This document shows, piece after piece, positions 34,288-45,916 of a DNA stretch of 46,061 nucleotides; within the stretch, counting starts at the first letter, position 1, and each line of letters starts with the position of its first letter. Under the pieces are notes generated by a model. That model made no database searches, was not told the DNA's origin, and saw nothing but the letters and a program-made list of their open reading frames with translations. The position numbers were made by a program, and so were the translations under genes. Location of the stretch: contig JAGXKN010000025.1 in NCBI GenBank assembly GCA_018335195.1, forward strand, positions 1 to 46,061, given 5' to 3'. Source of the DNA: Desulfobacterales bacterium (GTDB taxonomy: Bacteria; Desulfobacterota; Desulfobacteria; Desulfobacterales; Desulfosalsimonadaceae).

Positions 34288-35235
34288 GTGGCGTTGAGCC
34301 GCGCGGTCAGAAAGGAGCTTGCAGGCCGGTTCGGACAAAGGGCTTTTTTTGACGCGCCCATGGCTGATCATACCTCGTTCCGGGTGGGCGGTCCGGCCGA
34401 TGCCCTGGTTATGCCCGCAGATACCCCGGAATTGATCGATTTGATGCGCATGCTGGAACAGGCCGGGCTTCCGTGGTTGGTGCTCGGGGGCGGCACCAAC
34501 CTGCTGGTCCGGGACAAGGGAATTCGCGGCGTAGTGATCTCTTTGCGGCAGGGATTTTCCGATATCGCTACGCATGAAACCCGACCGGATTCCGTTACCG
34601 TGCATGCCGGGGCCGGGGCACGGCTGAGTGCGCTTTGCCGCTATGCCATAGAACATCACCTGGCAGGGATGCATGTTGTCGCCGGAATTCCCGGCACCGT
34701 GGGGGGGGCGATCCTGATGAATGCCGGCACCGCACAGGGCGCGATCGAATCCGTGCTTGCCGGTATCGACGTACTGCAAGTGCCGGATCAGACAACGCAC
34801 CTTGGCCGGGAGGCGCTGACGTTTGCCTACCGGAAGCTGGTGTGGAGCGCGGAAATGTGCGGGGCAAACGGATATGCGCCCCTGGTGCTCGGCGGCCGGT
34901 TCCGGCTTCAGCCGACCCGAGAACGGGATCTGGCGGCCGAAGTCGAGACCCTGCAGGCCATGCGCTGGCAAAGACAGCCAAGGGGACTTTCAGCCGGGTG
35001 CGTGTTTCAGAATCCCTCTGCGGAAATGCCGGCGGGCCGACTGATCGATCAGGCCGGGTTCAAGGGTTTTCGTATCGGCGATGCCCAGGTATCTGAGCTG
35101 CACGCAAATTTTATCATCAATCGGAACCGGGCCAGCGCGGCAGACATCCTTCGCTTAATGGCGATGATTCGGGAGAAAATCTACCAGACTTGCAATGTGA
35201 ACCTTCAACCGGAGATTCGGATTGTTGGCGAATGA
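34288..35235 (+). CDS. murB: UDP-N-acetylenolpyruvoylglucosamine reductase MurB
   Basis: 315-aa FAD enzyme reducing UDP-GlcNAc-enolpyruvate to UDP-MurNAc. Motifs are SFRVGGPADALV, LGGGTNLLVRDKGIRGVVI, a GIPGTVGGAILMNAG block and the active-site region SAGCVFQNPS, where Cys stands at the Ser position of the more usual GSVFKNP. The C-terminal NFIIN is typical. It starts with GTG at 34288, backed by GGGAGG four bases upstream. It overlaps the ftsQ start by 14 bases. No ddl gene follows, unlike the E. coli order. Confidence 0.95.
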   Translation: MALSRAVRKELAGRFGQRAFFDAPMADHTSFRVGGPADALVMPADTPELIDLMRMLEQAGLPWLVLGGGTNLLVRDKGIRGVVISLRQGFSDIATHETRPDSVTVHAGAGARLSALCRYAIEHHLAGMHVVAGIPGTVGGAILMNAGTAQGAIESVLAGIDVLQVPDQTTHLGREALTFAYRKLVWSAEMCGANGYAPLVLGGRFRLQPTRERDLAAEVETLQAMRWQRQPRGLSAGCVFQNPSAEMPAGRLIDQAGFKGFRIGDAQVSELHANFIINRNRASAADILRLMAMIREKIYQTCNVNLQPEIRIVGE

Positions 35236-36097
35236 ACGGATAATACATAAGCGGACCCGGGAAAACCGCTATAAGCAGGCACGTCAAAGAGCGTCTGCCT
35301 CCGGGGTTAGAAGGCCCGGCACGCTGGTTAAGTTCTTATCCGGCGCAGCGGCAATCGTGGTGATGAGCCTGTTGTTTATCTTCGGTCATGACTGGCTGAC
35401 CCAGTGCGATTATTTCCGGGCGGAAACCGTGCAGGTCGACGGGACCCGGAGGCTTTCGGACAAGCAGATCATGGAGACGGCCAAAATCACGGTAGGCGCC
35501 AACATTCTTATGATCAATCTTGCTACGGCACGCAAGCGTCTGCTGGCACTATCCTGGATTGCAGCCGCCGAAATCCGCAGGGAGTTTCCCGACACCATTA
35601 TGATCCGGGTTCGGGAGCACAACCCCATGGCCGTGATCGATCTGGGCAAACCGTTTCTGGTCAATGCCCGCGGAGAAATTTTCATGGAAGCACAAAAAGA
35701 GCAGTTTTCGGATCTGCCGGTGATAAAAGGCGCCGATTATCAGGACTGGAAGACGGGTGAAAGCGGAAACACACCCGTGTCCGAGGCGGTCATGTCCGTG
35801 CTGCGACTCGGCGGAAAAAGCAAAAGCGCGGTTCCCGTCGGCCGGATTGACCGGATCCACGTGGATCCGGAACTCGGGGTGACGCTGCGAACAGTCGGGT
35901 TCCCGGCAGCGCGGATTCATCTGGGGTATGGGGCATATGCGGTCAAGTATCGGCGCCTGGCAAAAATTCTTGAATACTGCGGGCGCAATGAAACGCCCCG
36001 GGAATTTGAGGAAATCGATCTGGGGTATCCGGATCGGATCGTGGCCAGCCCCGCAAAAGCGCAAACGGATCAAGCCAAACCGCAAAAGGAGGCATAG
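35222..36097 (+). CDS. ftsQ: Cell division protein FtsQ
   Basis: 291-aa bitopic divisome protein. A basic cytoplasmic N-terminus (about 1-35) is followed by one membrane helix (about 37-57, GAAAIVVMSLLFIFG). A POTRA domain begins FRAETVQVDGTRRLSDKQIM, and the FtsQ beta domain follows (SWIAAAEIRREFPDTIMIRV, then PVGRIDRIHVDP). The start is TTG at 35222, or the adjacent TTG at 35225, with GGAG about eight bases before it. The C-terminal tail is rich in Lys, Gln and Ala. Stop is one base before the ftsA GTG. Confidence 0.9.
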   Translation: MLANERIIHKRTRENRYKQARQRASASGVRRPGTLVKFLSGAAAIVVMSLLFIFGHDWLTQCDYFRAETVQVDGTRRLSDKQIMETAKITVGANILMINLATARKRLLALSWIAAAEIRREFPDTIMIRVREHNPMAVIDLGKPFLVNARGEIFMEAQKEQFSDLPVIKGADYQDWKTGESGNTPVSEAVMSVLRLGGKSKSAVPVGRIDRIHVDPELGVTLRTVGFPAARIHLGYGAYAVKYRRLAKILEYCGRNETPREFEEIDLGYPDRIVASPAKAQTDQAKPQKEA

Positions 36098-36098
36098 C

Positions 36099-37325
36099 GT
36101 GAAGGATCAAGAAGAGATCGTCGTCGGGCTGGATATCGGCACCACCAAGATCTGTACGGTGGTCGCAGAAGTTTCCGGCGACAAGGTGAATATTATCGGT
36201 ATCGGCAGTCATCCCTCCATCGGCCTGAGAAAAGGAGTGGTGGTCAATATCGATTCCACGGTCGATTCCATTAAAAAGGCCGTGCAGGATGCCGAATTGA
36301 TGGCGGGATGTGAAATATCTTCCGTGTATGCGGGAATTGCCGGCGGGCATGTTACCGGGTTCAACAGTCATGGCGTGATTGCCATCAAGGGCAAGGAAAT
36401 TACCCAGTCCGATGTCAACCGGGTGATCGAGGCTGCCCGTGCCGTGGCCATACCGATGGACCGGGAGGTCATCCACGTGCTGCCCCAGGAGTTTATCATA
36501 GACGGGGAAGCGGGCATCCAGAACCCGGTGGGCATGGCCGGAGTCCGGCTGGAGGCCAGGATTCACATTGTCACCGGCGCTGTGACCTCGGCGCAGAATA
36601 TCGTCAAGTGCGCAAACCAGGCGGGACTGGACGTATGCGACATAATCCTGGAGCCGATTGCCTCCTGCGAGTCCGTGCTTACCCCGGAGGAGCGGGAAGT
36701 CGGAACCGGGCTGATCGATCTCGGCGGGGGCACTACGGATCTGGCGATATTCTCCGGCAATACCATCCGACATACCTTTGTCCTCTCCCTTGGGGGAAAT
36801 AATATGACCAACGACATCTCGGTCGGTCTTCGGGTCCCGGTGGCCGAAGCTGAACGGATCAAAAAGGAGCACGGCACTTGCGTATCCGACAGGATCAAGA
36901 GCAACGAAACTATTGATCTGCCGGATATCGGCAGCCGAAAGGGCAGAAAGCTGCCGCGGCAGATCCTCTCGGAGATCCTTGAGCCCCGTGTGGAGGAAAT
37001 ATTTGCCCTGATTCAACGGGAGATCAACCGGGCGGACATGGGCGAGGAGATCGCCTCGGGAATTGTGCTCACAGGGGGCGCCTCGCTTCTGGAAGGTATA
37101 TCCGAGGTCGCGGAATCGGTCTTCGAAGTGCCGGTGCGCCAGGGAACCCCGCACGGAATCAGCGGCCTTGTGGACGTGGTCAACAATCCCATGTATGCCA
37201 CCGGCGTGGGCCTGGTTCTCTACGGCGCAAAGGACGAGGAGCGCAAGAAGTTCCGCATCCGGGATACCAATATTTTCAACCGGATCATCAGCCGGATGAA
37301 GCGGTGGTTCAGCGAAGTGATATAA
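36099..37325 (+). CDS. ftsA: Cell division protein FtsA
   Basis: 408-aa actin-like ATPase that tethers FtsZ to the membrane. VVGLDIGTTKICTVVAEV (about residues 8-25), a 1C-domain segment MDREVIHVLPQEFIIDG, GLIDLGGGTTDLAIF and GIVLTGGASLLEGI form the ATP site. The end, RIISRMKRWFSEVI, is the amphipathic membrane-targeting helix. The start is GTG at 36099 with AAAGGAGG six bases upstream; the open frame extends into ftsQ but that part is not FtsA-like. Followed by a 125-bp gap before ftsZ. Confidence 0.95.
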   Translation: MKDQEEIVVGLDIGTTKICTVVAEVSGDKVNIIGIGSHPSIGLRKGVVVNIDSTVDSIKKAVQDAELMAGCEISSVYAGIAGGHVTGFNSHGVIAIKGKEITQSDVNRVIEAARAVAIPMDREVIHVLPQEFIIDGEAGIQNPVGMAGVRLEARIHIVTGAVTSAQNIVKCANQAGLDVCDIILEPIASCESVLTPEEREVGTGLIDLGGGTTDLAIFSGNTIRHTFVLSLGGNNMTNDISVGLRVPVAEAERIKKEHGTCVSDRIKSNETIDLPDIGSRKGRKLPRQILSEILEPRVEEIFALIQREINRADMGEEIASGIVLTGGASLLEGISEVAESVFEVPVRQGTPHGISGLVDVVNNPMYATGVGLVLYGAKDEERKKFRIRDTNIFNRIISRMKRWFSEVI

Positions 37326-37340
37326 AACGCAGGCTTTACC

Positions 37341-37375
37341 TTGAAATTCGTATTTCGGATTTGCAGTCGAAATAA
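37341..37375. repeat. Fragment of the family A intergenic element, between ftsA and ftsZ
   Basis: TTGAAATTCGTATTTCGGAT followed by TTGCAGTCGAA resembles part of one arm of the elements at 6057 and 29016. Only about 35 bases are preserved, so this is a partial or decayed copy. Confidence 0.45.
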
Positions 37376-37450
37376 TGATGCGTATCAGGCAATCAATAGC
37401 TCGAGATAAAAAATAACAGGTCAAAACGCCCAACAGAGAACAGGAGGTCA

Positions 37451-38683
37451 ATGATGGATTTTACCTACGTGGACAATGAAGCATCCGCAAAAATCAAGGT
37501 GATCGGCGTCGGCGGCGGCGGCGGCAACGCGGTGAACAACATGATCGATTCTCACTTGAACGGGGTGAAGTTCATCGCAGCCAACACCGATGCACAGGCC
37601 CTGGCCCATGCCAAGGCCAACACCAAGATCCAGCTCGGCGAGCAACTCACCCAGGGCCTGGGTGCGGGCGCGGATCCCAACGTCGGCAGGGACGCGGCCA
37701 CGGAATCGGCAGATCTGCTTCGGGATGCCCTAAGCGACAGTCACATGATTTTTATCGCCGCGGGTCTTGGCGGGGGCACCGGCACGGGCGCGGCTCCGGT
37801 GATTGCGGAAATCTGCAAGGAACTCGGGGCGCTGACCGTGGCCGTAGTAACCAAGCCTTTCAAGTTCGAGGCAAGAAAGCGCAGCAAGCAGGCAGAGGAA
37901 GGCATCGCGCGGTTAAAGGAGGTGGCGGACACCGTGATAACGATTCCCAATGACCGGTTGCGCGGCCTTGCCAGCAAAAACGCACCCCTGATCGACATGT
38001 TCAAAATGGCCGATGAGATCCTGCACCATTCGGTCAAGGGCATCACAGACCTGATCATGCACCCCGGGCTCATCAACCTGGACTTTGCCGATGTGAAAAC
38101 CATCATGTCCAAGTCGGGCATGGCCATCATGGGCATCGGAATTTCCAACGGCGAAAACCGGGCGATCGAGGCCGCAGAGAAGGCCATTTCCCATCCGCTG
38201 CTGGAGGATAACTCCATTTCCGGGGCCAAGGGTGTGCTAATGAACATTACCAGCAATTCCGAGCTGACAATGGAAGAGGCCATCGAGGCTTCCGAGCGGA
38301 TTTACAACGAAATCGGCGACGATGACGTGGAAATTATCTGGGGAACCGCCATGGACGATTCCCTGGGTGATGAAATGCGCATCACCGTTATTGCCACAGG
38401 CATCGGGGAGGAAGAAGACCAGAGCATGCCGCTGCATAAACCGTCGGTTCGCCAGTTAAAGGATGTCAAGCGGGGCGTGGTTCGTGATTATACCCAGGAG
38501 GATCGGGAATATGAGAAGAACCTGAATCAGCCTACATTCTACCGCGTACGTCAGCAGCAGGCCGAGGAAAAAGAAGCGGGCAACGAGGGACAGCGCAAGA
38601 AAAAGGCAGGCAACAGCATGGAAGACTATTTTGACCTGGATATGCTCGATGTGCCAACGTTTCTGCGCAGAAAGGCCGACTAG
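37451..38683 (+). CDS. ftsZ: Cell division GTPase FtsZ
   Basis: 410-aa tubulin-like GTPase forming the division ring. IGVGGGGGNAVNNMI near the N-terminus, the signature GGGTGTG at residues 107-113, the T7 loop region NLDFADVKTIM and the closing LDVPTFLRRKAD, which is the conserved tail that binds FtsA, are all present. Two ATGs stand side by side; AGGAGG is three bases from the first and six from the second (37454), so the second may be used. Last gene of the dcw cluster. Confidence 0.97.
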   Translation: MMDFTYVDNEASAKIKVIGVGGGGGNAVNNMIDSHLNGVKFIAANTDAQALAHAKANTKIQLGEQLTQGLGAGADPNVGRDAATESADLLRDALSDSHMIFIAAGLGGGTGTGAAPVIAEICKELGALTVAVVTKPFKFEARKRSKQAEEGIARLKEVADTVITIPNDRLRGLASKNAPLIDMFKMADEILHHSVKGITDLIMHPGLINLDFADVKTIMSKSGMAIMGIGISNGENRAIEAAEKAISHPLLEDNSISGAKGVLMNITSNSELTMEEAIEASERIYNEIGDDDVEIIWGTAMDDSLGDEMRITVIATGIGEEEDQSMPLHKPSVRQLKDVKRGVVRDYTQEDREYEKNLNQPTFYRVRQQQAEEKEAGNEGQRKKKAGNSMEDYFDLDMLDVPTFLRRKAD

Positions 38684-39563: not shown

Positions 39564-40838
39564 ATGATGAAGAGGCCATTTTTCGGAATCGCAACACCGA
39601 AACTTAAATATGACGTGATCGAGGATGTTCAGCCCGAGCCTGTTACCGTGCAGCCGAAGCAGCGTGTGACCCTGTTTATTGAAAAGGCCTATGACAGGGC
39701 GGACAAGGCGCTGATTAAAAAGGGGGCCGCTGTTGTGCGCGGGCAGCGGCTGCAGCTGTTCGATGAAGATCCTGCCGCATACGCAATTTGTCCTGTTTCC
39801 GGGGTGATTTCCGAAATCTCGCCGTTTATCGGTATGATGGAAAAGCAGATGACCGCAGTGGTTATCGATACCGAATCTGACAGAGAGGATGACCGGGATA
39901 CTGCCTTTAAAGAGGTCTCCGGCACGCCGTCGATTGAAGATGCCGCCCGGTTTCTGGGCAGACTGCCGGGGAAACCGGATTTTACCCAGTTTACAGATGC
40001 TGACAGGATGGTCAAAACCATTGCCGTGCTGGGCGCGGATCAGGACCTGCAGTCCATAACCGGTCAGTATATCATCAAGACCGGGATCTCGTCGGTAAAA
40101 ACCGGCATCGACATTCTTCGCAAGATCACCGGCGTACAGAATATTGTCCTGGTGGTGGCCCAGCACCAGGTGCAGGTGGCCGGGACAGCAGCTGCAGGGG
40201 TTCGCTCAGTTGGTGCGCATTACCCGTCTGCGCACCCGGAAATGATTATTCGCCACCTGCTGGCCGAGCAGGCCGAGCAAGGGCAGATCGCGTTTTTGAC
40301 CGCCGAAGCGGTAGCCGGCATCGGCGCGGCCTATAACACCGGGGAGCTTCCGCTGGAAAAGCAGATCACCGTGGCCAAGAAAGACGGCACCCGGCAGCTT
40401 GTTACAGCACCCGTGGGAACCCACGCCGCAGACATCCTGGACGCGGTCAATGAACAGATTGAAAATGGGGATCGTCTTATCATGGGAGGCCCCATGACAG
40501 GCGATGCGGTGTATTCGCTGGAGCATCCGGTGGAACCGGATACGGAAGCCATTATGGTGCAGGACAAGGAGACGATCGTGGAGGGTACGGATACGCCGTG
40601 CACCAATTGCGGCGAATGCGTGCGCATCTGCCCGGCAAACATACCGGTCAACGAATTGGTAAGACTGCTCGATGCCGGGGAATATGAGCAGGCGGCTGAA
40701 CAGGCCGCCCTGTTTTCATGCATTGAATGCGGACTGTGCGCATACGTTTGTGAATCCCGAATACCGATTTTTCAGTTTATCAGGCTGGCCAAGCATGCCG
40801 TCAAACGCATGAGAGCAGCGGAGGAAGCAAATGCCTAA
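39564..40838 (+). CDS. rnfC: Rnf complex subunit RnfC (divergent, lacks the usual NADH/FMN motifs)
   Basis: 424-aa peripheral subunit of the Rnf ion-translocating oxidoreductase. Two [4Fe-4S] motifs are clear: Cys346/349/352/356 (CTNCGECVRICP) and Cys386/389/392/396 (CIECGLCAYVC). The N-terminal RnfC-type barrel segment (AYAICPVSGVISEISPF) and a central SLBB-like region (LPLEKQITVAKKDG...VGTHAADILD) are also seen. The glycine-rich GGAGFPT and the ECEPY motifs that bind FMN and NADH in ordinary RnfC are not found; the corresponding stretch reads IAVLGADQDLQSITGQYI. Two adjacent ATGs follow AAAGGTAGG. It overlaps rnfD by eight bases. Electron input may therefore come through RnfB instead. Confidence 0.88.
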   Translation: MMKRPFFGIATPKLKYDVIEDVQPEPVTVQPKQRVTLFIEKAYDRADKALIKKGAAVVRGQRLQLFDEDPAAYAICPVSGVISEISPFIGMMEKQMTAVVIDTESDREDDRDTAFKEVSGTPSIEDAARFLGRLPGKPDFTQFTDADRMVKTIAVLGADQDLQSITGQYIIKTGISSVKTGIDILRKITGVQNIVLVVAQHQVQVAGTAAAGVRSVGAHYPSAHPEMIIRHLLAEQAEQGQIAFLTAEAVAGIGAAYNTGELPLEKQITVAKKDGTRQLVTAPVGTHAADILDAVNEQIENGDRLIMGGPMTGDAVYSLEHPVEPDTEAIMVQDKETIVEGTDTPCTNCGECVRICPANIPVNELVRLLDAGEYEQAAEQAALFSCIECGLCAYVCESRIPIFQFIRLAKHAVKRMRAAEEANA

Positions 40839-41799
40839 CCCGACGAAGTTAACGGTTTCCCATGCCCCGTTTCTGCATGACGGAAGCGAAATATCCAACA
40901 AGCAATACAATATCATTGCGGCCACACTGATTGCGGTGATAGCCGGATTGCTCCAGTACGGCATTCCGGCCCTCGGCGTGCTGACACTTTCGGTGGGCTC
41001 GGCAATGGCCTGGGAACTGCTGATGAACCTGCTCACCCGCCGGCCCGTGTCCATCGGAGACGGCAATGCCGCGCTGATCGGTTTGCTGTTTGCGATGCTG
41101 CTGCCGGCGGTGGTGCCCTGGTGGCTGGTGGTGACCGGGACGTTTGTTGCCGTGGTGATCGGCAAGCAGATTTACGGCGGCATCGGGGGGAATCCGTTTA
41201 ATCCTGTTGTGGTGGCCTACGCGATCCTGATGATCTCCTGGCCGATGTTCCTGGATTTCAACGCTGCGCTGGTGGATTACCAGTTCGATTTTACGGCCGG
41301 CTTCCCGCTGGTACTATATGAAGCTTACGGTACCGCCGGCCTGGAATCATTCAGCCCCGGCGGACTGCTGCTGGGTCAGCAGGCCGGCGGCATCGGGGCG
41401 ACTTTCGGGCTGGGGCTGATTATTGGCGGCATTTACCTGATCCTGCGGGGCTTTATCCGCTGGGAAATCGCTGTATCTTTTCTGGCAGGAATCTTTATTA
41501 CCGCCTTGTGCTTCAACCTTTATAACCCGGAAGTTTACGCCGGCCCCGTATTCCATATCCTGACGGGATACGCGCTTATCGGTGCATTCTTCCTGGCCCC
41601 GGAGGATTCCTCTTCCCCGGTGCATTTCGCTCCCATGTTGATCTACGGGCTGTTGGGCGGCTTTCTGACCGTTTTGATCCGGAACCTGGGAGCCCACGTG
41701 GACGGCGTCATATACGCGATACTGATTATAAACCTGGTCCATCCGATTATCGATAAAATCAGACCCAAGGCAATGAGAAGGGTTATGCATCATGCGTGA
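40831..41799 (+). CDS. rnfD: Rnf complex membrane subunit RnfD
   Basis: 322-aa integral membrane subunit with about ten helices. Family segments are the N-terminal SHAPFLHD, GDGNAALIGLLFAMLLPAVVPWW, IYGGIGGNPFNPVVVAYAIL and the late LIYGLLGGFLTVLIRNLGAHVDGVIYAILIIN. The position where canonical RnfD carries the covalent-FMN threonine (ATPL in E. coli RsxD) here reads DFTAGFPLV, so that flavin is probably absent. The ATDPVTSP loop is replaced by APEDSSSP. The start is supported by GGAGGAAG. Overlaps rnfC and rnfG by eight bases each. Confidence 0.9.
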   Translation: MPNPTKLTVSHAPFLHDGSEISNKQYNIIAATLIAVIAGLLQYGIPALGVLTLSVGSAMAWELLMNLLTRRPVSIGDGNAALIGLLFAMLLPAVVPWWLVVTGTFVAVVIGKQIYGGIGGNPFNPVVVAYAILMISWPMFLDFNAALVDYQFDFTAGFPLVLYEAYGTAGLESFSPGGLLLGQQAGGIGATFGLGLIIGGIYLILRGFIRWEIAVSFLAGIFITALCFNLYNPEVYAGPVFHILTGYALIGAFFLAPEDSSSPVHFAPMLIYGLLGGFLTVLIRNLGAHVDGVIYAILIINLVHPIIDKIRPKAMRRVMHHA

Positions 41800-42391
41800 A
41801 ATGGTGAAAATGGTCATTGTGCTCACGGTGCTGAGCAGTCTTTCCGGCGGGCTGCTGGCGGCCTTGAAAAATAATACCCAGGACCGGATTGACAGCCAGG
41901 TGTTAACATTTGTCAAGGGCCCGGCAATCGAGAACATTCTGGAAGGCGCAAACAACGATCCGGTCAATGACCGATTTTCGCTGAAGGTCGAAGGCGAGGA
42001 GGAGGAAAGAAACTTTTTCGTCGGCGTCTATGACGGCAACCCCAAGGCGGTTGCCTTTGAGACCCGGGCCTCGGGCTACGGCGGGGACATGGGGGTCATG
42101 GTGGCCTTCAATGTAGAATCCGAGGAGATCATGGGCGTCAGCGTGACCACCCATAATGAAACCCCCGGCGTGGGTGCCACCGTGGAGACCGACACGAATT
42201 TCAAGAATCAGTTTGCCGGGCTGCCCGCAGATGCAGAGCCCAGGGTGAAAGGTGACGGCGGCAGCATCAACGCCATGTCCGGGGCCACCATTACCTCGCG
42301 CGCGGTGTGCAAGGCCGTCAGTCGGGCCACGGATCTGTATCAGCAGCTGCAATCCCAAATCAAGGACAAGGTGAAAACCTTTACCGGCTAG
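41792..42391 (+). CDS. rnfG: Rnf complex subunit RnfG (covalent flavin carrier)
   Basis: 199-aa subunit with one N-terminal membrane helix (about residues 5-25) and a soluble FMN-binding domain on the outer face. The flavinylation motif MSGATITS is intact, with the acceptor Thr at residue 166. HNETPGVGATVETDTNFKNQF (about 127-147) is the other family hallmark. An ApbE-type flavin transferase is required but is not encoded in this window. Confidence 0.95.
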   Translation: MREMVKMVIVLTVLSSLSGGLLAALKNNTQDRIDSQVLTFVKGPAIENILEGANNDPVNDRFSLKVEGEEEERNFFVGVYDGNPKAVAFETRASGYGGDMGVMVAFNVESEEIMGVSVTTHNETPGVGATVETDTNFKNQFAGLPADAEPRVKGDGGSINAMSGATITSRAVCKAVSRATDLYQQLQSQIKDKVKTFTG

Positions 42392-42404: not shown

Positions 42405-42998
42405 ATGGCAAAAACCATCGGGCAGGAATTTGTAAAGGGCTTATGGGAGGAAATTCCTCCGTTTCGGCTGGTGCTCGGGTTATGCCCGACGCTTGCGGTC
42501 ACCAAGTCCGTGGAAAACGGCATCGGAATGGGGCTTGCAACCACATTCGTACTGGTATGTGCAAATCTGCTGGTTTCCATTCTAAGCGGGATTATCCCCT
42601 CAAAAATCCGGATCGCCTGTTTTATCATCATTATCGCCACATTTGTGACAGTGGTTGAGCTTATGATGCAGGCGTATGCCTATCAGTTGTTCCAGAATCT
42701 CGGGATTTTTATTCCGTTGATCGTGGTCAACTGTATCGTGCTGGGGCGTGCCGAGGCTTTTGCCTCCAAAAACAAGGTGATCCCATCGTTTGCTGACGGG
42801 CTTGGCATCGGCGTGGGGTTTACCCTTTCGCTGACCGCAATCAGCGCCGTCCGGGAATGTTTGGGAAACGGTACCCTGCTGGGCTACAGCATATTCGGGC
42901 CCGCTTTCGAGCCTTTTTCCTTTATGGTGGAAGCACCGGGGGCGTTTATCTGCCTGGGGCTTCTGCTGTGCATCATGAATCTCGTCGGGCAGAAGTAA
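42405..42998 (+). CDS. rnfE: Rnf complex membrane subunit RnfE
   Basis: 197-aa membrane protein with about six helices, paralogous to RnfA in inverted topology. Cys27 in LGLCPTLAVT and Cys110 in PLIVVNCIVLGRAEAFAS match the cysteines that, with the RnfA pair, hold a [2Fe-2S] cluster within the membrane in studied Rnf/Nqr complexes. The start follows GGAGTGA with suitable spacing. A 113-bp gap separates it from rnfA. Confidence 0.94.
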   Translation: MAKTIGQEFVKGLWEEIPPFRLVLGLCPTLAVTKSVENGIGMGLATTFVLVCANLLVSILSGIIPSKIRIACFIIIIATFVTVVELMMQAYAYQLFQNLGIFIPLIVVNCIVLGRAEAFASKNKVIPSFADGLGIGVGFTLSLTAISAVRECLGNGTLLGYSIFGPAFEPFSFMVEAPGAFICLGLLLCIMNLVGQK

Positions 42999-43111: not shown

Positions 43112-43687
43112 ATGGGCGACTACATGGTCCTGATCGTCAGCAGCATGCTTATTAACAATATCGTGTTGGCGCAATACCTGGGGATCTGCCCGTTTATCGG
43201 GACTTCCAAGAAAATGGAAACCGCCACCGGCATGGCCGGCGCGGTTGTCTTTGTCATGACGCTGGCGGCAATTATTACCTGGTGTATTGACACCTATTTC
43301 TTAAAAACCCTGGACATCGAGTATTTGCGAACAATTGCCTTTATCCTGGTGATCGCCTCGCTGGTGCAGTTTGTTGAAATGTTTCTCAAAAAGAGCATCC
43401 CAGCCCTGTATGCCGGCCTGGGCATATTTCTTCCGCTGATTACCACCAACTGTTCGGTGATGGGTGTCTGCCTGATCAATATCCAGGAGGAGTACACGTT
43501 TCTTGAAGCCCTGACTTCCTCCATTGCTTATGCACTGGGTTTCGGCCTGGCGCTGATCCTGTTTGCCGGCGTCCGGGAGCGGGTGATTCTTGGCAGGGTT
43601 CCCAAGCCCCTGCAGGATACCTCGATCGGGCTGGTGACCGCGGGCATGCTGGCTCTTGCATTTATCGGGTTCAAGGGGCTGGTCTGA
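43112..43687 (+). CDS. rnfA: Rnf complex membrane subunit RnfA
   Basis: 191-aa membrane protein with about six helices. The signature INNIVLAQYLGICPFIGTSKK carries Cys26, and LPLITTNCSVMGVCL carries Cys114, the presumed ligands of the intramembrane [2Fe-2S] cluster shared with RnfE. The ATG is preceded by AGGAGA. Followed by a 150-bp gap with a small GC-rich hairpin (43725-43739) before rnfB. Confidence 0.95.
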   Translation: MGDYMVLIVSSMLINNIVLAQYLGICPFIGTSKKMETATGMAGAVVFVMTLAAIITWCIDTYFLKTLDIEYLRTIAFILVIASLVQFVEMFLKKSIPALYAGLGIFLPLITTNCSVMGVCLINIQEEYTFLEALTSSIAYALGFGLALILFAGVRERVILGRVPKPLQDTSIGLVTAGMLALAFIGFKGLV

Positions 43688-43837: not shown

Positions 43838-45916
43838 GTGATTCACGCAATTTTGTTTACACTGGGTCTGGGAGGTGCCTGCGGGCTGGCTTTGAGTGTT
43901 GCCTCCAAGATTTTTTACGTATATGAAGATCCGCGGATCGCAAGAGTCGAAAACCTGCTTGCCGGCGCCAATTGTGGCGGATGCGGATATGCCGGATGCG
44001 CGGCCGCAGCCGAGGCCGTAGTCAAGGAAGAGGCGTCGCCCAATGTATGCATCCTGGCAAGCCCGGAAAACGTGGCTGCTGTTGCCGCAATCATGGGATC
44101 GGAGGCTGGCACAGCCGAACCTTACAAATCGTATAACGACTGCCTCGGCGGCCACCGTGCCGCGGACCGGTATTTTTACCATGGTTTAAATCGCTGCAAT
44201 GCGGTCAACGCGCTTTACGGCGGAAAGCGGGAATGTTCGATCGGATGCCTCGGGTTCGGTGACTGTGTCCACGCGTGCAAGTTTGACGCCCTTGAGATCG
44301 GCCCGAACGGGTATCCGATCGTGGACAAGGACAAGTGCGTGGGATGCGGGGCGTGCGAGCAGATCTGCCCCAAGTCGATTATCGAGGTGCGCACCATGTC
44401 CCAGCGCCTGTTGCACTTAAATACCGAAGACGATCCGCTTTCGCCCTGCCAGCAGACCTGTCCGGCGGAAATCGATATTCCCAGGTATTTGCGACAGATC
44501 CGGGAAGGCGAGTACGACTCGGCAGTTGATACCATCCGGGAAAGAAACCCGCTTCTTCTAGCCTGCGGGCGGGTGTGCCCCCATCCCTGCGAGGAATACT
44601 GCCGGCGATCCATTGAGGATACGGAATCAGTTTCCATTAATCAGCTCAAACGGTTTGTGGCGGACAGGGAGATGAATTCCGGCAGCCGACGGCCCATACC
44701 CTGCGCACCGGATACCGGCAAGCGGGTGGCAGTGATCGGCGGCGGTCCGGCCGGATTGAGTTGTGCTTATTTTCTGCGGCGCGTGGGTCACAGCGTGAAT
44801 ATCTTCGAGGCCATGCCCGGGCTCGGCGGAATGCTCAGATACGGCATACCGGAATACCGTCTGCCCAAGGCGGTGCTCGACTGGGAGATCGAAGGGATTT
44901 TGAACCTGGGCATTGAATACCACACCAATGTGAAAATGGGCGTGGACTTTGATTTGGGCTCCCTTGTAGGGGCCGGCTTTGATTCGATCTTCATGGCCGT
45001 TGGCGCATGGAAGGATTACCGGCTCAAGATCCCGGGCGAGGATTTAAACGGGTGCTTTACCGGTATTAACTTTCTTTCGCGCATGGCCGGCCAGGAACCG
45101 GTCCGTATCGGCAACCGGGCCGCGGTGATCGGCGGCGGCAACACGGCCATTGACTGCGCGCGGACGCTGGTGCGAAAGGGGCTTGAAAAGGTTTACCTGG
45201 TATACCGCCGCACCCGCACGGAGATGCCGGCAAATGAAGTGGAAATCGAGGCGGCCGGGCACGAGGGCATTGAATTTATTTTTCTGGCCGCGCCCAACAA
45301 GGTGATCGGCGATTCGGATGAAAACGTAGCTGGCCTTGAATACTTGAAAATGGAGCTCGGGGAGCCGGATGCCAGCGGGCGCCGGCGGCCCGTTCCCGTG
45401 GAGGGCTCAGAGACCGTGCTGGACGTGGATACGATTATTACCGCCATCGGACAGTCTCCGGATACGTCTTTCCAAACCCCGGGCACCCGGATGGATGAAT
45501 TAAATATGACGCGGTGGGGCACCATTGATGTGGATCCGGAGACCTGCCGCTCAAACGTTCCCTATATTTTTGCCGCAGGTGACGGCGCCACGGGGCCGGC
45601 CCTGGTTGTGGATGCCATTGGCGGCGGCCGCAGGGCCGCACGGGCCATTGACCTGTTTTTAAAGGGCCGGGAGGTGGCGCCCAAGCCACGGGCACTGCTG
45701 TCCAAGCGGCACATCAATGAGTCGCTTTTTGAAACCGTCCCCGGGGTCAAAAAGAGCCGGCGTACCGGAATGCCGGAACTTCCGGTCCAGGACCGGATCC
45801 ACAGCTTTGTGGAAGTCGATCAGGTGCTTGGCGAGCCCGAGGCATTGTCCGAGGCGGCCCGCTGTTTGAACTGTTGCCGGTTGTGTTATGATCCGGATAC
45901 CCGAAATGCTGCATAG
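43838..45916 (+). CDS. rnfB: Rnf subunit RnfB fused to a GltD/NfnB-like FAD/NAD(P)H oxidoreductase
   Basis: 692-aa fusion. Residues 1-190 are ordinary RnfB: an N-terminal membrane helix, an Fe-S motif at Cys46/49/54/71 (CGGCGYAGC), and two ferredoxin clusters (CSIGCLGFGDCVHAC at 133-147 and CVGCGACEQIC at 167-177). From about residue 200 a second module follows. It has an Fe-S-binding helical domain (CQQTCPAEIDIPRYL, CGRVCPHPCEEYC), an FAD motif IGGGPAG near 300, an NAD(P) motif IGGGNTAID near 431 with YRRTRTEMPA after it, and a closing FAAGDGATGPALVVDAIGGG. This matches the small subunit of glutamate synthase and NfnB; arginines in the YRR segment suggest NADPH. The start is GTG after GAGGGG. 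A cysteine-rich end (CLNCCRLC) may hold another metal site. Confidence 0.93.
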   Translation: MIHAILFTLGLGGACGLALSVASKIFYVYEDPRIARVENLLAGANCGGCGYAGCAAAAEAVVKEEASPNVCILASPENVAAVAAIMGSEAGTAEPYKSYNDCLGGHRAADRYFYHGLNRCNAVNALYGGKRECSIGCLGFGDCVHACKFDALEIGPNGYPIVDKDKCVGCGACEQICPKSIIEVRTMSQRLLHLNTEDDPLSPCQQTCPAEIDIPRYLRQIREGEYDSAVDTIRERNPLLLACGRVCPHPCEEYCRRSIEDTESVSINQLKRFVADREMNSGSRRPIPCAPDTGKRVAVIGGGPAGLSCAYFLRRVGHSVNIFEAMPGLGGMLRYGIPEYRLPKAVLDWEIEGILNLGIEYHTNVKMGVDFDLGSLVGAGFDSIFMAVGAWKDYRLKIPGEDLNGCFTGINFLSRMAGQEPVRIGNRAAVIGGGNTAIDCARTLVRKGLEKVYLVYRRTRTEMPANEVEIEAAGHEGIEFIFLAAPNKVIGDSDENVAGLEYLKMELGEPDASGRRRPVPVEGSETVLDVDTIITAIGQSPDTSFQTPGTRMDELNMTRWGTIDVDPETCRSNVPYIFAAGDGATGPALVVDAIGGGRRAARAIDLFLKGREVAPKPRALLSKRHINESLFETVPGVKKSRRTGMPELPVQDRIHSFVEVDQVLGEPEALSEAARCLNCCRLCYDPDTRNAA

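What the first reader, a model, noticed from the sequence alone, without database searches (positions are those of the whole stretch)
43838..45916. RnfB fused to a complete NfnB/GltD-like FAD-NAD(P)H module
Seen: a normal RnfB (membrane helix, CGGCGYAGC cluster, two ferredoxin clusters) runs on in one frame into a domain with two further Fe-S motifs, an FAD site and an NAD(P) site. Known: NfnB and GltD use this module to exchange electrons between NADPH and Fe-S centres, and Nfn bifurcates electrons. Inference: this Rnf could take electrons from or give them to NAD(P)H at RnfB itself, perhaps NADPH rather than NADH, and might couple bifurcation to ion pumping. The YRRTRTEMPA segment after the dinucleotide motif favours NADPH.
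Basis: partly seen in the sequence, partly recalled or inferred. Interest (0 to 1): 0.8.

Follow-up and report, generated by a model that had tools for sequence, protein, structure and literature searches.

The report
RnfB fused to NADPH module
A membrane ion pump of marine sulfate reducers carries an NADPH-using enzyme welded to its electron-entry subunit and has lost its usual NADH exit; the fusion itself is already in print, but the lost exit parts suggest the pump may push electrons outward to a cytochrome, which can now be tested.

Summary
One uninterrupted 692-aa frame joins a complete RnfB to a GltD/NfnB-like FAD-NADP(H) module. It is no assembly join: 128 distinct fused ORFs were collected, one from a complete Desulfosarcina chromosome. 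The kind is known: "Rnf2"/"Tol2-type" Rnf, with a ~700-aa RnfB and an RnfC without the NADH domain, is in print (PMC5109826, PMC11887813). NADPH rather than NADH is supported by the YRR motif. Bifurcation is not supported: the module matches the non-bifurcating StnC/NfnABC type and carries its lysine (K271) where bifurcating NfnB has a glutamate ligand. New here: in fusion operons RnfC lost its FMN/NADH site (GGAxFP 0 of 41; 49 of 49 in the comparison set, defined by that motif) but keeps all eight cluster cysteines; RnfD lost its covalent-FMN motif (0 of 41 versus 47 of 49); RnfG keeps its own; a multihaem cytochrome ORF precedes rnfC in 33 of 41 (0 of 49). A second, mostly orphan fused RnfB without the NADP signature sits beside rseC in 33 of 40 loci. 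Best reading (0.45): NADPH or ferredoxin electrons leave via RnfG to periplasmic cytochrome. Direction, RnfC's role and ion pumping are untested.

The parts
43838..45916 (+). rnfB fused to GltD/NfnB/StnC-like FAD-NADP(H) module, 692 aa, GTG start
43841..43912 (+). N-terminal helix of RnfB (residues 2-25), likely membrane anchor
   Evidence: predicted helix in the model; membrane role inferred from RnfB homology
43958..44053 (+). RnfB FeS domain (residues 41-72; C46 C49 C54 C71)
   Evidence: Pfam PF04060; cysteines 128 of 128 fused ORFs
44234..44368 (+). RnfB ferredoxin-like dicluster region (C133-C177)
   Evidence: Pfam Fer4 families; cysteines 128 of 128
44444..44680 (+). Fer4_20 domain (residues 203-281): C204 C208 C247 C251 C255 and K271 (codon 44648-44650), the StnC-type lysine in place of NfnB Glu117
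   Evidence: meaning of the lysine from PMC10482914
44723..45625 (+). FAD and NADP(H) Rossmann domains (residues 296-596)
   Evidence: Pfam PF07992; fold match Z 40.9 to 9bov_A
45131..45232 (+). GGGNTAID ... YRRTRTEMPA: NADP(H) signature (residues 432-465)
   Evidence: YRR specificity from PMC7596348
45863..45886 (+). C-terminal C676 C679 C683; C676/C679 align to distal-cluster ligands C39/C42 of NfnB
   Evidence: 128 of 128 fused ORFs
39564..40838 (+). rnfC, 424 aa, keeps two [4Fe-4S] motifs but lacks the FMN/NADH motif GGAxFP; no Complex1_51K or SLBB Pfam hit
40831..41799 (+). rnfD; the covalent-FMN threonine column holds Phe164 (codon 41320-41322)
41792..42391 (+). rnfG, keeps the SGAT flavin-attachment motif (residues 163-166)
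42405..42998 (+). rnfE, keeps C27 and C110 (with RnfA C26, C114: membrane [2Fe-2S] ligands by homology)
43112..43687 (+). rnfA, keeps C26 and C114
38860..39507 (+). octahaem c-type cytochrome (8 CxxCH, N-terminal hydrophobic stretch) immediately upstream of rnfC
   Evidence: start codon chosen by eye

Best explanation
The locus encodes an Rnf2-type complex in which the nicotinamide site has moved from the exit (RnfC) to the entry (RnfB) and the exit has been re-plumbed. NADPH reduces FAD in the RnfB-fused module; electrons pass one by one through the proximal (C208, C247, C251, probably K271) and distal (C204, C255, C676, C679) clusters into the RnfB ferredoxin-like clusters, where ferredoxin can also enter, then over the RnfA/E [2Fe-2S] cluster to the FMN of RnfG in the periplasm. 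With no RnfD covalent FMN and no RnfC NADH site, the return path to NAD+ is cut or weakened, and RnfG hands electrons to the co-encoded multihaem cytochrome, as proposed for Methanosarcina. It works as an NADPH (or ferredoxin):cytochrome c ion pump, or in reverse makes NADPH and ferredoxin from periplasmic electrons at the cost of the ion gradient. Shown by sequence: fusion, intact NADP(H) signature, cluster ligands, lost RnfC and RnfD sites, kept RnfG and RnfA/E sites, cytochrome gene. Inferred: electron path, direction, partner, ion pumping, and a remaining but unknown job for the RnfC clusters.
For: NADP(H) module intact and StnC-like. RnfC motif GGAxFP in 0 of 28 type-A and 0 of 13 operon type-B loci; the 49 motif-bearing loci show no fused RnfB in the stretch fetched. 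Of 23 residues chosen as invariant in those 49, fusion RnfCs keep 2-6 (A) or 3-9 (B); the eight cluster cysteines are kept in 124 of 124. RnfD flavinylation regex in 0 of 41 versus 47 of 49; Thr column 49 of 49 versus 2 of 28 and 0 of 13; in A. woodii RnfD FMN is on T156 (PMC11889175 passage). RnfG [ST]G[AS][TS] in 28 of 28 and 13 of 13. RnfA/E cysteines kept. Multihaem ORF just upstream of rnfC in 24 of 28, 9 of 13 and 0 of 49. Own genome: no other full-length RnfC match. Proposed precedent for RnfG to cytochrome c without NAD(P): PMC4023990 (passages). Vesicle attempts at Fd:NAD+ coupled pumping with D. alaskensis were reported unsuccessful (PMC4841214 passage).
Against: RnfC keeps both clusters in all 41 fusion loci, so it still seems to carry electrons and this model gives it no job. 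In D. alaskensis the cytochrome beside rnf (dhcA) was not important for fitness in nearly all conditions while rnf was required in several (PMC4215793 passage), and the authors of PMC4841214 favour ferredoxin oxidation with proton pumping. 4 of 28 type-A and 4 of 13 type-B operons show no multihaem ORF just upstream of rnfC. Many other RnfD invariants are kept and the riboflavin site was not mapped, so transfer from FMN-G to riboflavin without FMN-D is not excluded. With a stricter regex (acid or Asn upstream) the RnfG motif is seen in 24 of 28 type-A loci. Sulfate-reducer papers describe Rnf as linking ferredoxin and NADH. Everything here is sequence and predicted structure.
Confidence: 0.45

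Rival explanations
1. Relocated NADP site on the classical U-path: ferredoxin to RnfB, RnfA/E, RnfG, RnfD riboflavin, RnfC clusters, then to the FAD of the RnfB-fused module, which reduces NADP+. The complex would be an ion-pumping ferredoxin:NADP+ oxidoreductase.
For: RnfC clusters kept in 124 of 124 although its own FMN/NADH site is gone, so a new acceptor is needed; in A. woodii RnfC touches RnfB (PMC11889175 passage); many RnfD invariants are kept.
Against: RnfD FMN motif absent in 41 of 41; RnfB and RnfC clusters are more than 30 A apart in A. woodii; module clusters are on the RnfB chain, so a short circuit past the pump would be expected (inference); type-B modules lost the NADP signature.
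Confidence: 0.22
2. NQR-like machine by convergence: NADPH enters at RnfB (like NADH at NqrF) and electrons leave to menaquinone near RnfD/RnfC; the cytochrome is accessory.
For: The published Nqr-origin model has the same two steps, loss of the RnfC/NqrA NAD and FMN sites and gain of a NADH module at the entry (PMC4014512 passages); the RnfC model resembles RnfC and then NqrA.
Against: NQR keeps the covalent FMN in NqrB (PMC12174285 table), whereas RnfD here has lost the motif; no quinone site was tested; RnfC keeps clusters that NqrA lacks.
Confidence: 0.13
3. One reading: the module bifurcates NADPH electrons to ferredoxin and into the Rnf chain.
For: NfnB with the same fold bifurcates; the module has both clusters and FAD.
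Against: Closest relatives are the StnC/NfnABC type, with StnC reported non-bifurcating (PMC10482914); Lys replaces the NfnB Glu ligand in 127 of 128 fused ORFs (Gln in the other); no NfnA-like ORF noticed in the operon (by eye).
Confidence: 0.05
4. Ordinary Rnf with a passenger domain: the fused module has a structural or regulatory role and the complex still exchanges electrons between ferredoxin and NADH.
For: Type-B fusions show that the scaffold and clusters can persist without the NADP signature; Rnf2 is said to link the NADH and ferredoxin pools and is abundant and constitutive (PMC11887813 passages).
Against: The RnfC NADH/FMN site is lost in every fusion locus examined; in type A the glycines G432-G434 are kept in 51 of 51 (R457/R458 define the group).
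Confidence: 0.1

Closest known systems
Rnf2 / Desulfobacula toluolica Tol2-type Rnf (PMC5109826 section 23 read; PMC11887813 passages)
   Same: ~700-aa RnfB with NAD-binding sites, RnfC without NADH-ubiquinone-oxidoreductase and SLBB domains, cytochrome gene in the cluster; the window is a member.
   Different: The text seen does not mention the RnfD flavin loss, the StnC-type lysine, or the second orphan fused RnfB; supplementary text and fig. S18 of PMC11887813 could not be read.
Desulfovibrionaceae rnf operon with decahaem cytochrome and an 'FAD-dependent oxidoreductase' in place of RnfB (PMC11434368 passages)
   Same: Fused RnfB found in 17 of the 29 matching genomes of the family of L211 (59 searched); an ORF with ten CxxCH and a motif-less RnfC in L211 and L250.
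   Different: That paper reads it as loss of rnfB; here the RnfB part is present at the N-terminus of the same ORF (that its genomes and mine are the same kind is inferred).
StnC of StnABC (8oh5) and subunit A of NfnABC (9bov, 9n5u)
   Same: GltD-like FAD-NADPH module with a lysine at the proximal-cluster position and C-terminal RCxxC cysteines; fold Z 38-41.
   Different: Here the module is fused to RnfB, with no NuoG/FdhF-like part; StnC feeds a HydBC-like bifurcating core.
NfnB (NfnL) and GltD
   Same: Same fold and cofactor set; YRR shared with NfnB.
   Different: Glu ligand replaced by Lys; the cysteine segment at the NfnB N-terminus lies at the C-terminus; lower fold scores (Z 26-30).
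Methanosarcina acetivorans Rnf with multihaem cytochrome (PMC4023990 passages)
   Same: Proposed NAD(P)-independent exit from RnfG to a co-encoded cytochrome c; RnfC with clusters but another role.
   Different: No fused NADPH module in the passages seen; archaeal; methanophenazine acceptor.
Na+-NQR (PMC4014512, PMC12174285 passages)
   Same: A nicotinamide module at the entry subunit and a lost RnfC/NqrA NADH site.
   Different: NqrF has another fold and a [2Fe-2S]; NqrB keeps covalent FMN; NqrA has no clusters.

Membership tests
RnfB | FeS domain CGGCGYAGC...C and ferredoxin-like dicluster behind an N-terminal helix | tested here: met
RnfB | gene in an rnfCDGEA operon | tested here: met
Classical Rnf, ferredoxin:NAD+ oxidoreductase | RnfC FMN/NADH site (GGAxFP and associated residues) | tested here: not met
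   motif absent in the window and in 41 of 41 fusion-locus RnfCs; 2-9 of 23 site residues kept
Classical Rnf, ferredoxin:NAD+ oxidoreductase | covalent FMN attachment motif in RnfD | tested here: not met
   Phe164 in the window; 0 of 41 versus 47 of 49 by regex
Classical Rnf, ferredoxin:NAD+ oxidoreductase | covalent FMN motif in RnfG and four [2Fe-2S] cysteines in RnfA/RnfE | tested here: met
Classical Rnf, ferredoxin:NAD+ oxidoreductase | Fd:NAD+ activity coupled to ion pumping | not testable with these tools
   needs enzymology
Rnf2 / Tol2-type Rnf | RnfB of ~700 aa with nicotinamide-binding site | tested here: met
   692 aa
Rnf2 / Tol2-type Rnf | RnfC lacking NADH-ubiquinone-oxidoreductase and SLBB domains | tested here: met
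   no Complex1_51K or SLBB hit at E 0.001 in the window RnfC; in the fusion set Complex1_51K hits (best 3.8e-16) remain in 29 of 41 and SLBB in 5 of 41, versus 49 and 48 of 49
Rnf2 / Tol2-type Rnf | cytochrome gene in the cluster | tested here: met
   octahaem ORF upstream of rnfC
NfnB (bifurcating) | glutamate ligand at the proximal cluster | tested here: not met
   E117 of NfnB aligns to K271
NfnB (bifurcating) | NfnA partner | tested here: inconclusive
   no NfnA-like ORF noticed by eye among the ORFs listed around the operon; no dedicated search was made
StnC-type GltD-like module | lysine at the proximal cluster, YRR, C-terminal RCxxC, fold | tested here: met
StnC | NuoG/FdhF-like region | tested here: not met
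   no such family among the 21 Pfam hits of the 692 aa
Na+-NQR | NqrF-type FAD/[2Fe-2S] entry subunit | tested here: not met
   entry subunit is RnfB plus GltD-like module

The most novel reading that the evidence does not exclude
Rnf2 is not a ferredoxin:NADH pump at all but a transmembrane NADPH/ferredoxin:cytochrome c ion pump with no NADH site and no RnfD covalent flavin, and many genomes of this order hold two alternative fused RnfB heads for one membrane engine: one NADPH-active (type A, usually with the operon) and one whose NADP signature is gone (type B, mostly orphan, paired with rseC). This would be a third kind of RNF/NQR machine beside Rnf and NQR.
Probability: 0.3. Interest if true: 0.8.

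Novelty: new member of a known kind. Interest (0 to 1): 0.6.

Why it matters
Rnf2 is reported as core genome and as abundant, constitutive protein in Desulfobacteraceae (PMC11887813 passages), a leading family of sulfate reducers in marine sediment, where it is said to link the ferredoxin and NADH pools. If the NADH exit and the RnfD flavin are really gone, energy budgets of these bacteria, of Desulfovibrio relatives and perhaps of electron-accepting partners of methane oxidisers need rewriting, and the coupling site of RNF/NQR pumps becomes testable: an Rnf that pumps without RnfD FMN would favour ion translocation at RnfA/E.

Tried and rejected
Assembly join or frameshift: rejected (128 distinct fused ORFs, one from a complete chromosome). 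Fusion as a two-gene misread: rejected, one frame.

Domain loss in RnfC as deletion: rejected; the fold is kept and Complex1_51K hits remain in 29 of 41, so it is residue-level loss. A first motif regex was too strict and was replaced. A first RnfB profile became contaminated by the fused tail and over-called fusions; counts use the separate N-terminal and module queries.

Type-B fusions as simply dead modules: not concluded. R458 is lost in 76 of 77, but in 31 it is Glu, and 17 of those keep a GxGxxA/G loop, so NAD(H) use by some is possible. In the fold search of the fused RnfB the rows shown cover the module; RnfB chains did not appear among them, which is no evidence against.

The 120 rnf loci were picked by me from the listed matches (140 genomes; the list was cut off near E 1e-57, and weaker matches were neither listed nor fetched), nearly all the low-scoring listed ones plus part of the high-scoring ones, so percentages are not population estimates. 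RnfC was found in 124 of the 181 stretches (L016-L195 and window); the rest are second-copy loci, NQR-like or other loci, or contig ends. The 'classical' comparison set was defined by the GGAxFP motif, and the 23 RnfC residues were chosen as invariant in it, so its 49 of 49 and 23 of 23 are by construction; RnfD, haem and fusion counts do not depend on that choice. In the comparison set RnfG was found by the window query in 30 loci or 40, with the motif in 27 and 32, and RnfE C110 aligned in 34 of 49; these lower figures may be alignment losses. Type A is defined by R457/R458. The tree uses 199 columns and only 17 of 67 small RnfBs; its bootstrap had not settled and it warns of long branches. 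Supplementary files of papers could not be read. The 2013 D. toluolica genome paper was not seen, and neither was Pereira et al. 2011 (look-up not held).
Full report
1. What is there. Window 43838-45916 (+) is one frame of 692 aa. Residues 1-190 are RnfB: N-terminal helix, FeS domain, ferredoxin-like clusters. Residues about 196-692 are a GltD/NfnB-type module: Fer4_20, FAD and NADP Rossmann folds, and a C-terminal CxxCxxxC. It ends the operon cytochrome-rnfC-D-G-E-A-B, with gaps of 56, -8, -8, 13, 113 and 150 bp. Upstream lie ftsQ, ftsA and ftsZ (Pfam).

2. It is not an artefact. A search of the phylum with the rnfD family found a match in 140 of 394 genomes at E 1e-20 (the list of places was cut off). 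I fetched 120 rnf loci. Fused RnfB, that is N-terminal RnfB and module hits in one ORF, occurs in 22 of these plus the window. In the order, 100 of 118 genomes match residues 1-301 at E 1e-40; by my reading of that table five of these have only small-RnfB scores (best E about 1e-44 to 1e-46), the other 95 are fusion-like, and 61 list two or more matches. With further loci and 80 named loci (not all fused) I hold 133 fused ORFs of at least 640 aa, 128 distinct. Named carriers include Desulfosarcina alkanivorans (complete chromosome), Desulfocarbo indianensis, Desulfopila aestuarii, Desulfatibacillum alkenivorans, a Pseudodesulfovibrio MAG and a Desulfovibrio MAG. In a tree of the RnfB part the 83 fused rows form one clade against 17 small RnfBs (100/95), which fits one origin (caveats in Tried and rejected).

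3. Prior art. PMC5109826 (section 23 read) describes a Desulfobacula toluolica-type Rnf with ~700-aa RnfB holding NAD-binding sites and an RnfC without NADH and SLBB domains, says its mode of action awaits verification, and finds both Rnf types expressed in Desulfococcus multivorans. PMC11887813 (passages) calls it Rnf2, core genome and constitutive in Desulfobacteraceae. [quoted passage not shown] in 59 genomes of the family of L211, 29 match and 17 of them have the fused form, 12 only the small form, so I read that oxidoreductase as the fused RnfB (inference). PMC4287179 (passages) cites the idea that the operon cytochrome links the periplasmic cytochrome pool with NAD(P)H/ferredoxin. The kind is therefore known; I call the window a new member.

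4. The module. Sequence and fold put it with subunit A of NfnABC and StnC (9bov_A Z 40.9, 8oh5_C Z 39.8, 9n5u_A Z 39.5), above NfnB and GltD (Z 26-30). By the alignments, window C204/C208/C247/C251/C255 match NfnB C47/C51/C90/C96/C100, C676/C679 match C39/C42, and K271 matches NfnB E117 and StnC K170 (NfnB ligand list from PMC7596348; numbering got by counting along the alignments). PMC10482914 (abstract and passages) reports that StnC lost bifurcation, feeds NADPH electrons linearly into clusters, and needs K170 (Cys or Ala abolish activity, Arg keeps at least half). Position 271 is Lys in 127 of 128 fused ORFs. YRR is the NADP phosphate site of NfnB and goes with NADP(H)-only activity in DsrL-2. 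So: NADPH, linear, not bifurcating (inference from close relatives).

5. The rest of the operon has changed with it. RnfC was found in 124 of 181 stretches: 28 with type-A fusion, 13 with operon type-B fusion, 33 others without the FMN motif, 49 with it, and L136. GGAxFP is absent in all 41 fusion loci. Of 23 residues invariant in the 49, type-A RnfCs keep 2-6 and type-B 3-9, while all eight cluster cysteines stay in 124 of 124. The predicted RnfC fold still matches RnfC first, then NqrA. RnfD: the covalent-FMN motif regex is found in 47 of 49, 0 of 28, 0 of 13 and 10 of 33; the column is Thr in 49 of 49, 2 of 28 and 0 of 13, while many other RnfD invariants are kept. In A. woodii RnfD FMN hangs on T156 and RnfG FMN on T185 (PMC11889175 passage). 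RnfG keeps [ST]G[AS][TS] in 28 of 28 and 13 of 13 (24 of 28 and 13 of 13 with a stricter pattern); RnfA C26 is kept in 27 of 28 and 13 of 13, and RnfA C114, RnfE C27 and C110 in all 41. An ORF with at least three CxxCH lies within 1.2 kb upstream of rnfC in 24 of 28, 9 of 13, 20 of 33 and 0 of 49. The window's own has eight. In the Desulfovibrionaceae set the RnfC profile passes its cut-off in only 2 of 29 genomes, both of which also have a small RnfB. So RnfC decay is wider than the fusion and may have preceded it (inference).

6. Own genome. The window's RnfC is the only full-length match (four others are partial). Complex1_51K occurs at two other places, C83 and C60. A second fused RnfB at C35 (39 per cent identity over 1-689) lies beside an RseC gene (Pfam RseC_MucC E 1.1e-30). 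Across 40 loci picked as such second copies, 33 have an rseC-like ORF on the same strand, 32 of them within 420 bp; of the 40, one (L136) lies in an rnf operon. In 77 type-B sequences R458 is kept in 1, Y456 in 5, N435 in 11, against the 22 cysteines and the FAD GxGxxG in 77 of 77. Clusters are held, the nicotinamide site drifts; in 31 of 77 position 458 is Glu, which would fit NAD(H) in some (the Glu/NAD rule is recalled).

7. Mechanism. The parts kept (module, RnfB, RnfA/E, RnfG) make a continuous path from NADPH or ferredoxin to the periplasm; the parts lost (RnfD FMN, RnfC FMN/NADH) are those of the way back. Together with the cytochrome gene this points to exit at RnfG, as proposed for M. 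acetivorans (PMC4023990 passages; RnfG there -129 mV). NADPH below -320 mV to about -130 mV leaves roughly 190 mV per electron, enough in principle for one ion per electron near 180 mV (my estimate). Against it: RnfC clusters are kept; dhcA was not important in D. alaskensis in nearly all conditions (PMC4215793); eight of 41 operons show no such cytochrome. For it: Fd:NAD+ vesicle experiments with D. alaskensis were unsuccessful (PMC4841214 passage); that its Rnf is of this type is inferred from gene order (decahaem cytochrome before rnfCDGEABF) and relatives, not tested.

8. Verdict. Observation confirmed; NADPH entry likely; bifurcation unlikely; kind already in print. The coupled loss of RnfC and RnfD flavin sites and the type-B heads were not mentioned in the text I saw (searches, listings read; papers mostly by passages), which does not cover most subscription journals or supplements.

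Noticed in passing
L002 / L175 (own genome C35:36891-38936 -): A second fused RnfB without the NADP signature, outside any rnf operon, beside an RseC gene; the pair recurs in 33 of 40 loci of the order.
   Followed up: partly
rows G491:C1:2267797, G414:C38, G452:C7, G476:C327, G444:C533, G417:C66: Six listed fused-rnfB matches contain one in-frame TGA within residues 1-301; a selenocysteine in place of a cluster cysteine is possible. The sequences were not fetched.
   Followed up: no
L065:10657-12483 and L070:1980-3842: ORFs with the NuoF-type motif RGRGGAGFP near rnfC in two type-B operons; a possible separate NADH site.
   Followed up: no
L035, L047, L052, L082, L086, L094, L095, L099, L101: Separate GltD-like ORFs (482-688 aa, no RnfB part) within a few kb of rnf operons whose RnfC has the FMN motif.
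   Followed up: no
L253: A Candidatus Desulfofervidaceae MAG has a small RnfB, an RnfC without GGAxFP and an RnfD without the FMN motif, although Rnf of such methane-oxidation partners is described as exchanging NADH and ferredoxin (PMC10553843 passage).
   Followed up: partly
L242:3132-4505: In Salidesulfovibrio brasiliensis (draft) the fused rnfB frame is interrupted; the match spans residues 1-687 but the open frame ends at 458 aa.
   Followed up: no
L029 (G174): G174 has rnfCDGEA but no RnfB match at E 1e-40 anywhere, so its entry subunit is unknown.
   Followed up: no
window 35222-38683: The rnf operon follows ftsQ, ftsA and ftsZ (Pfam), a neighbourhood that seems unusual.
   Followed up: no
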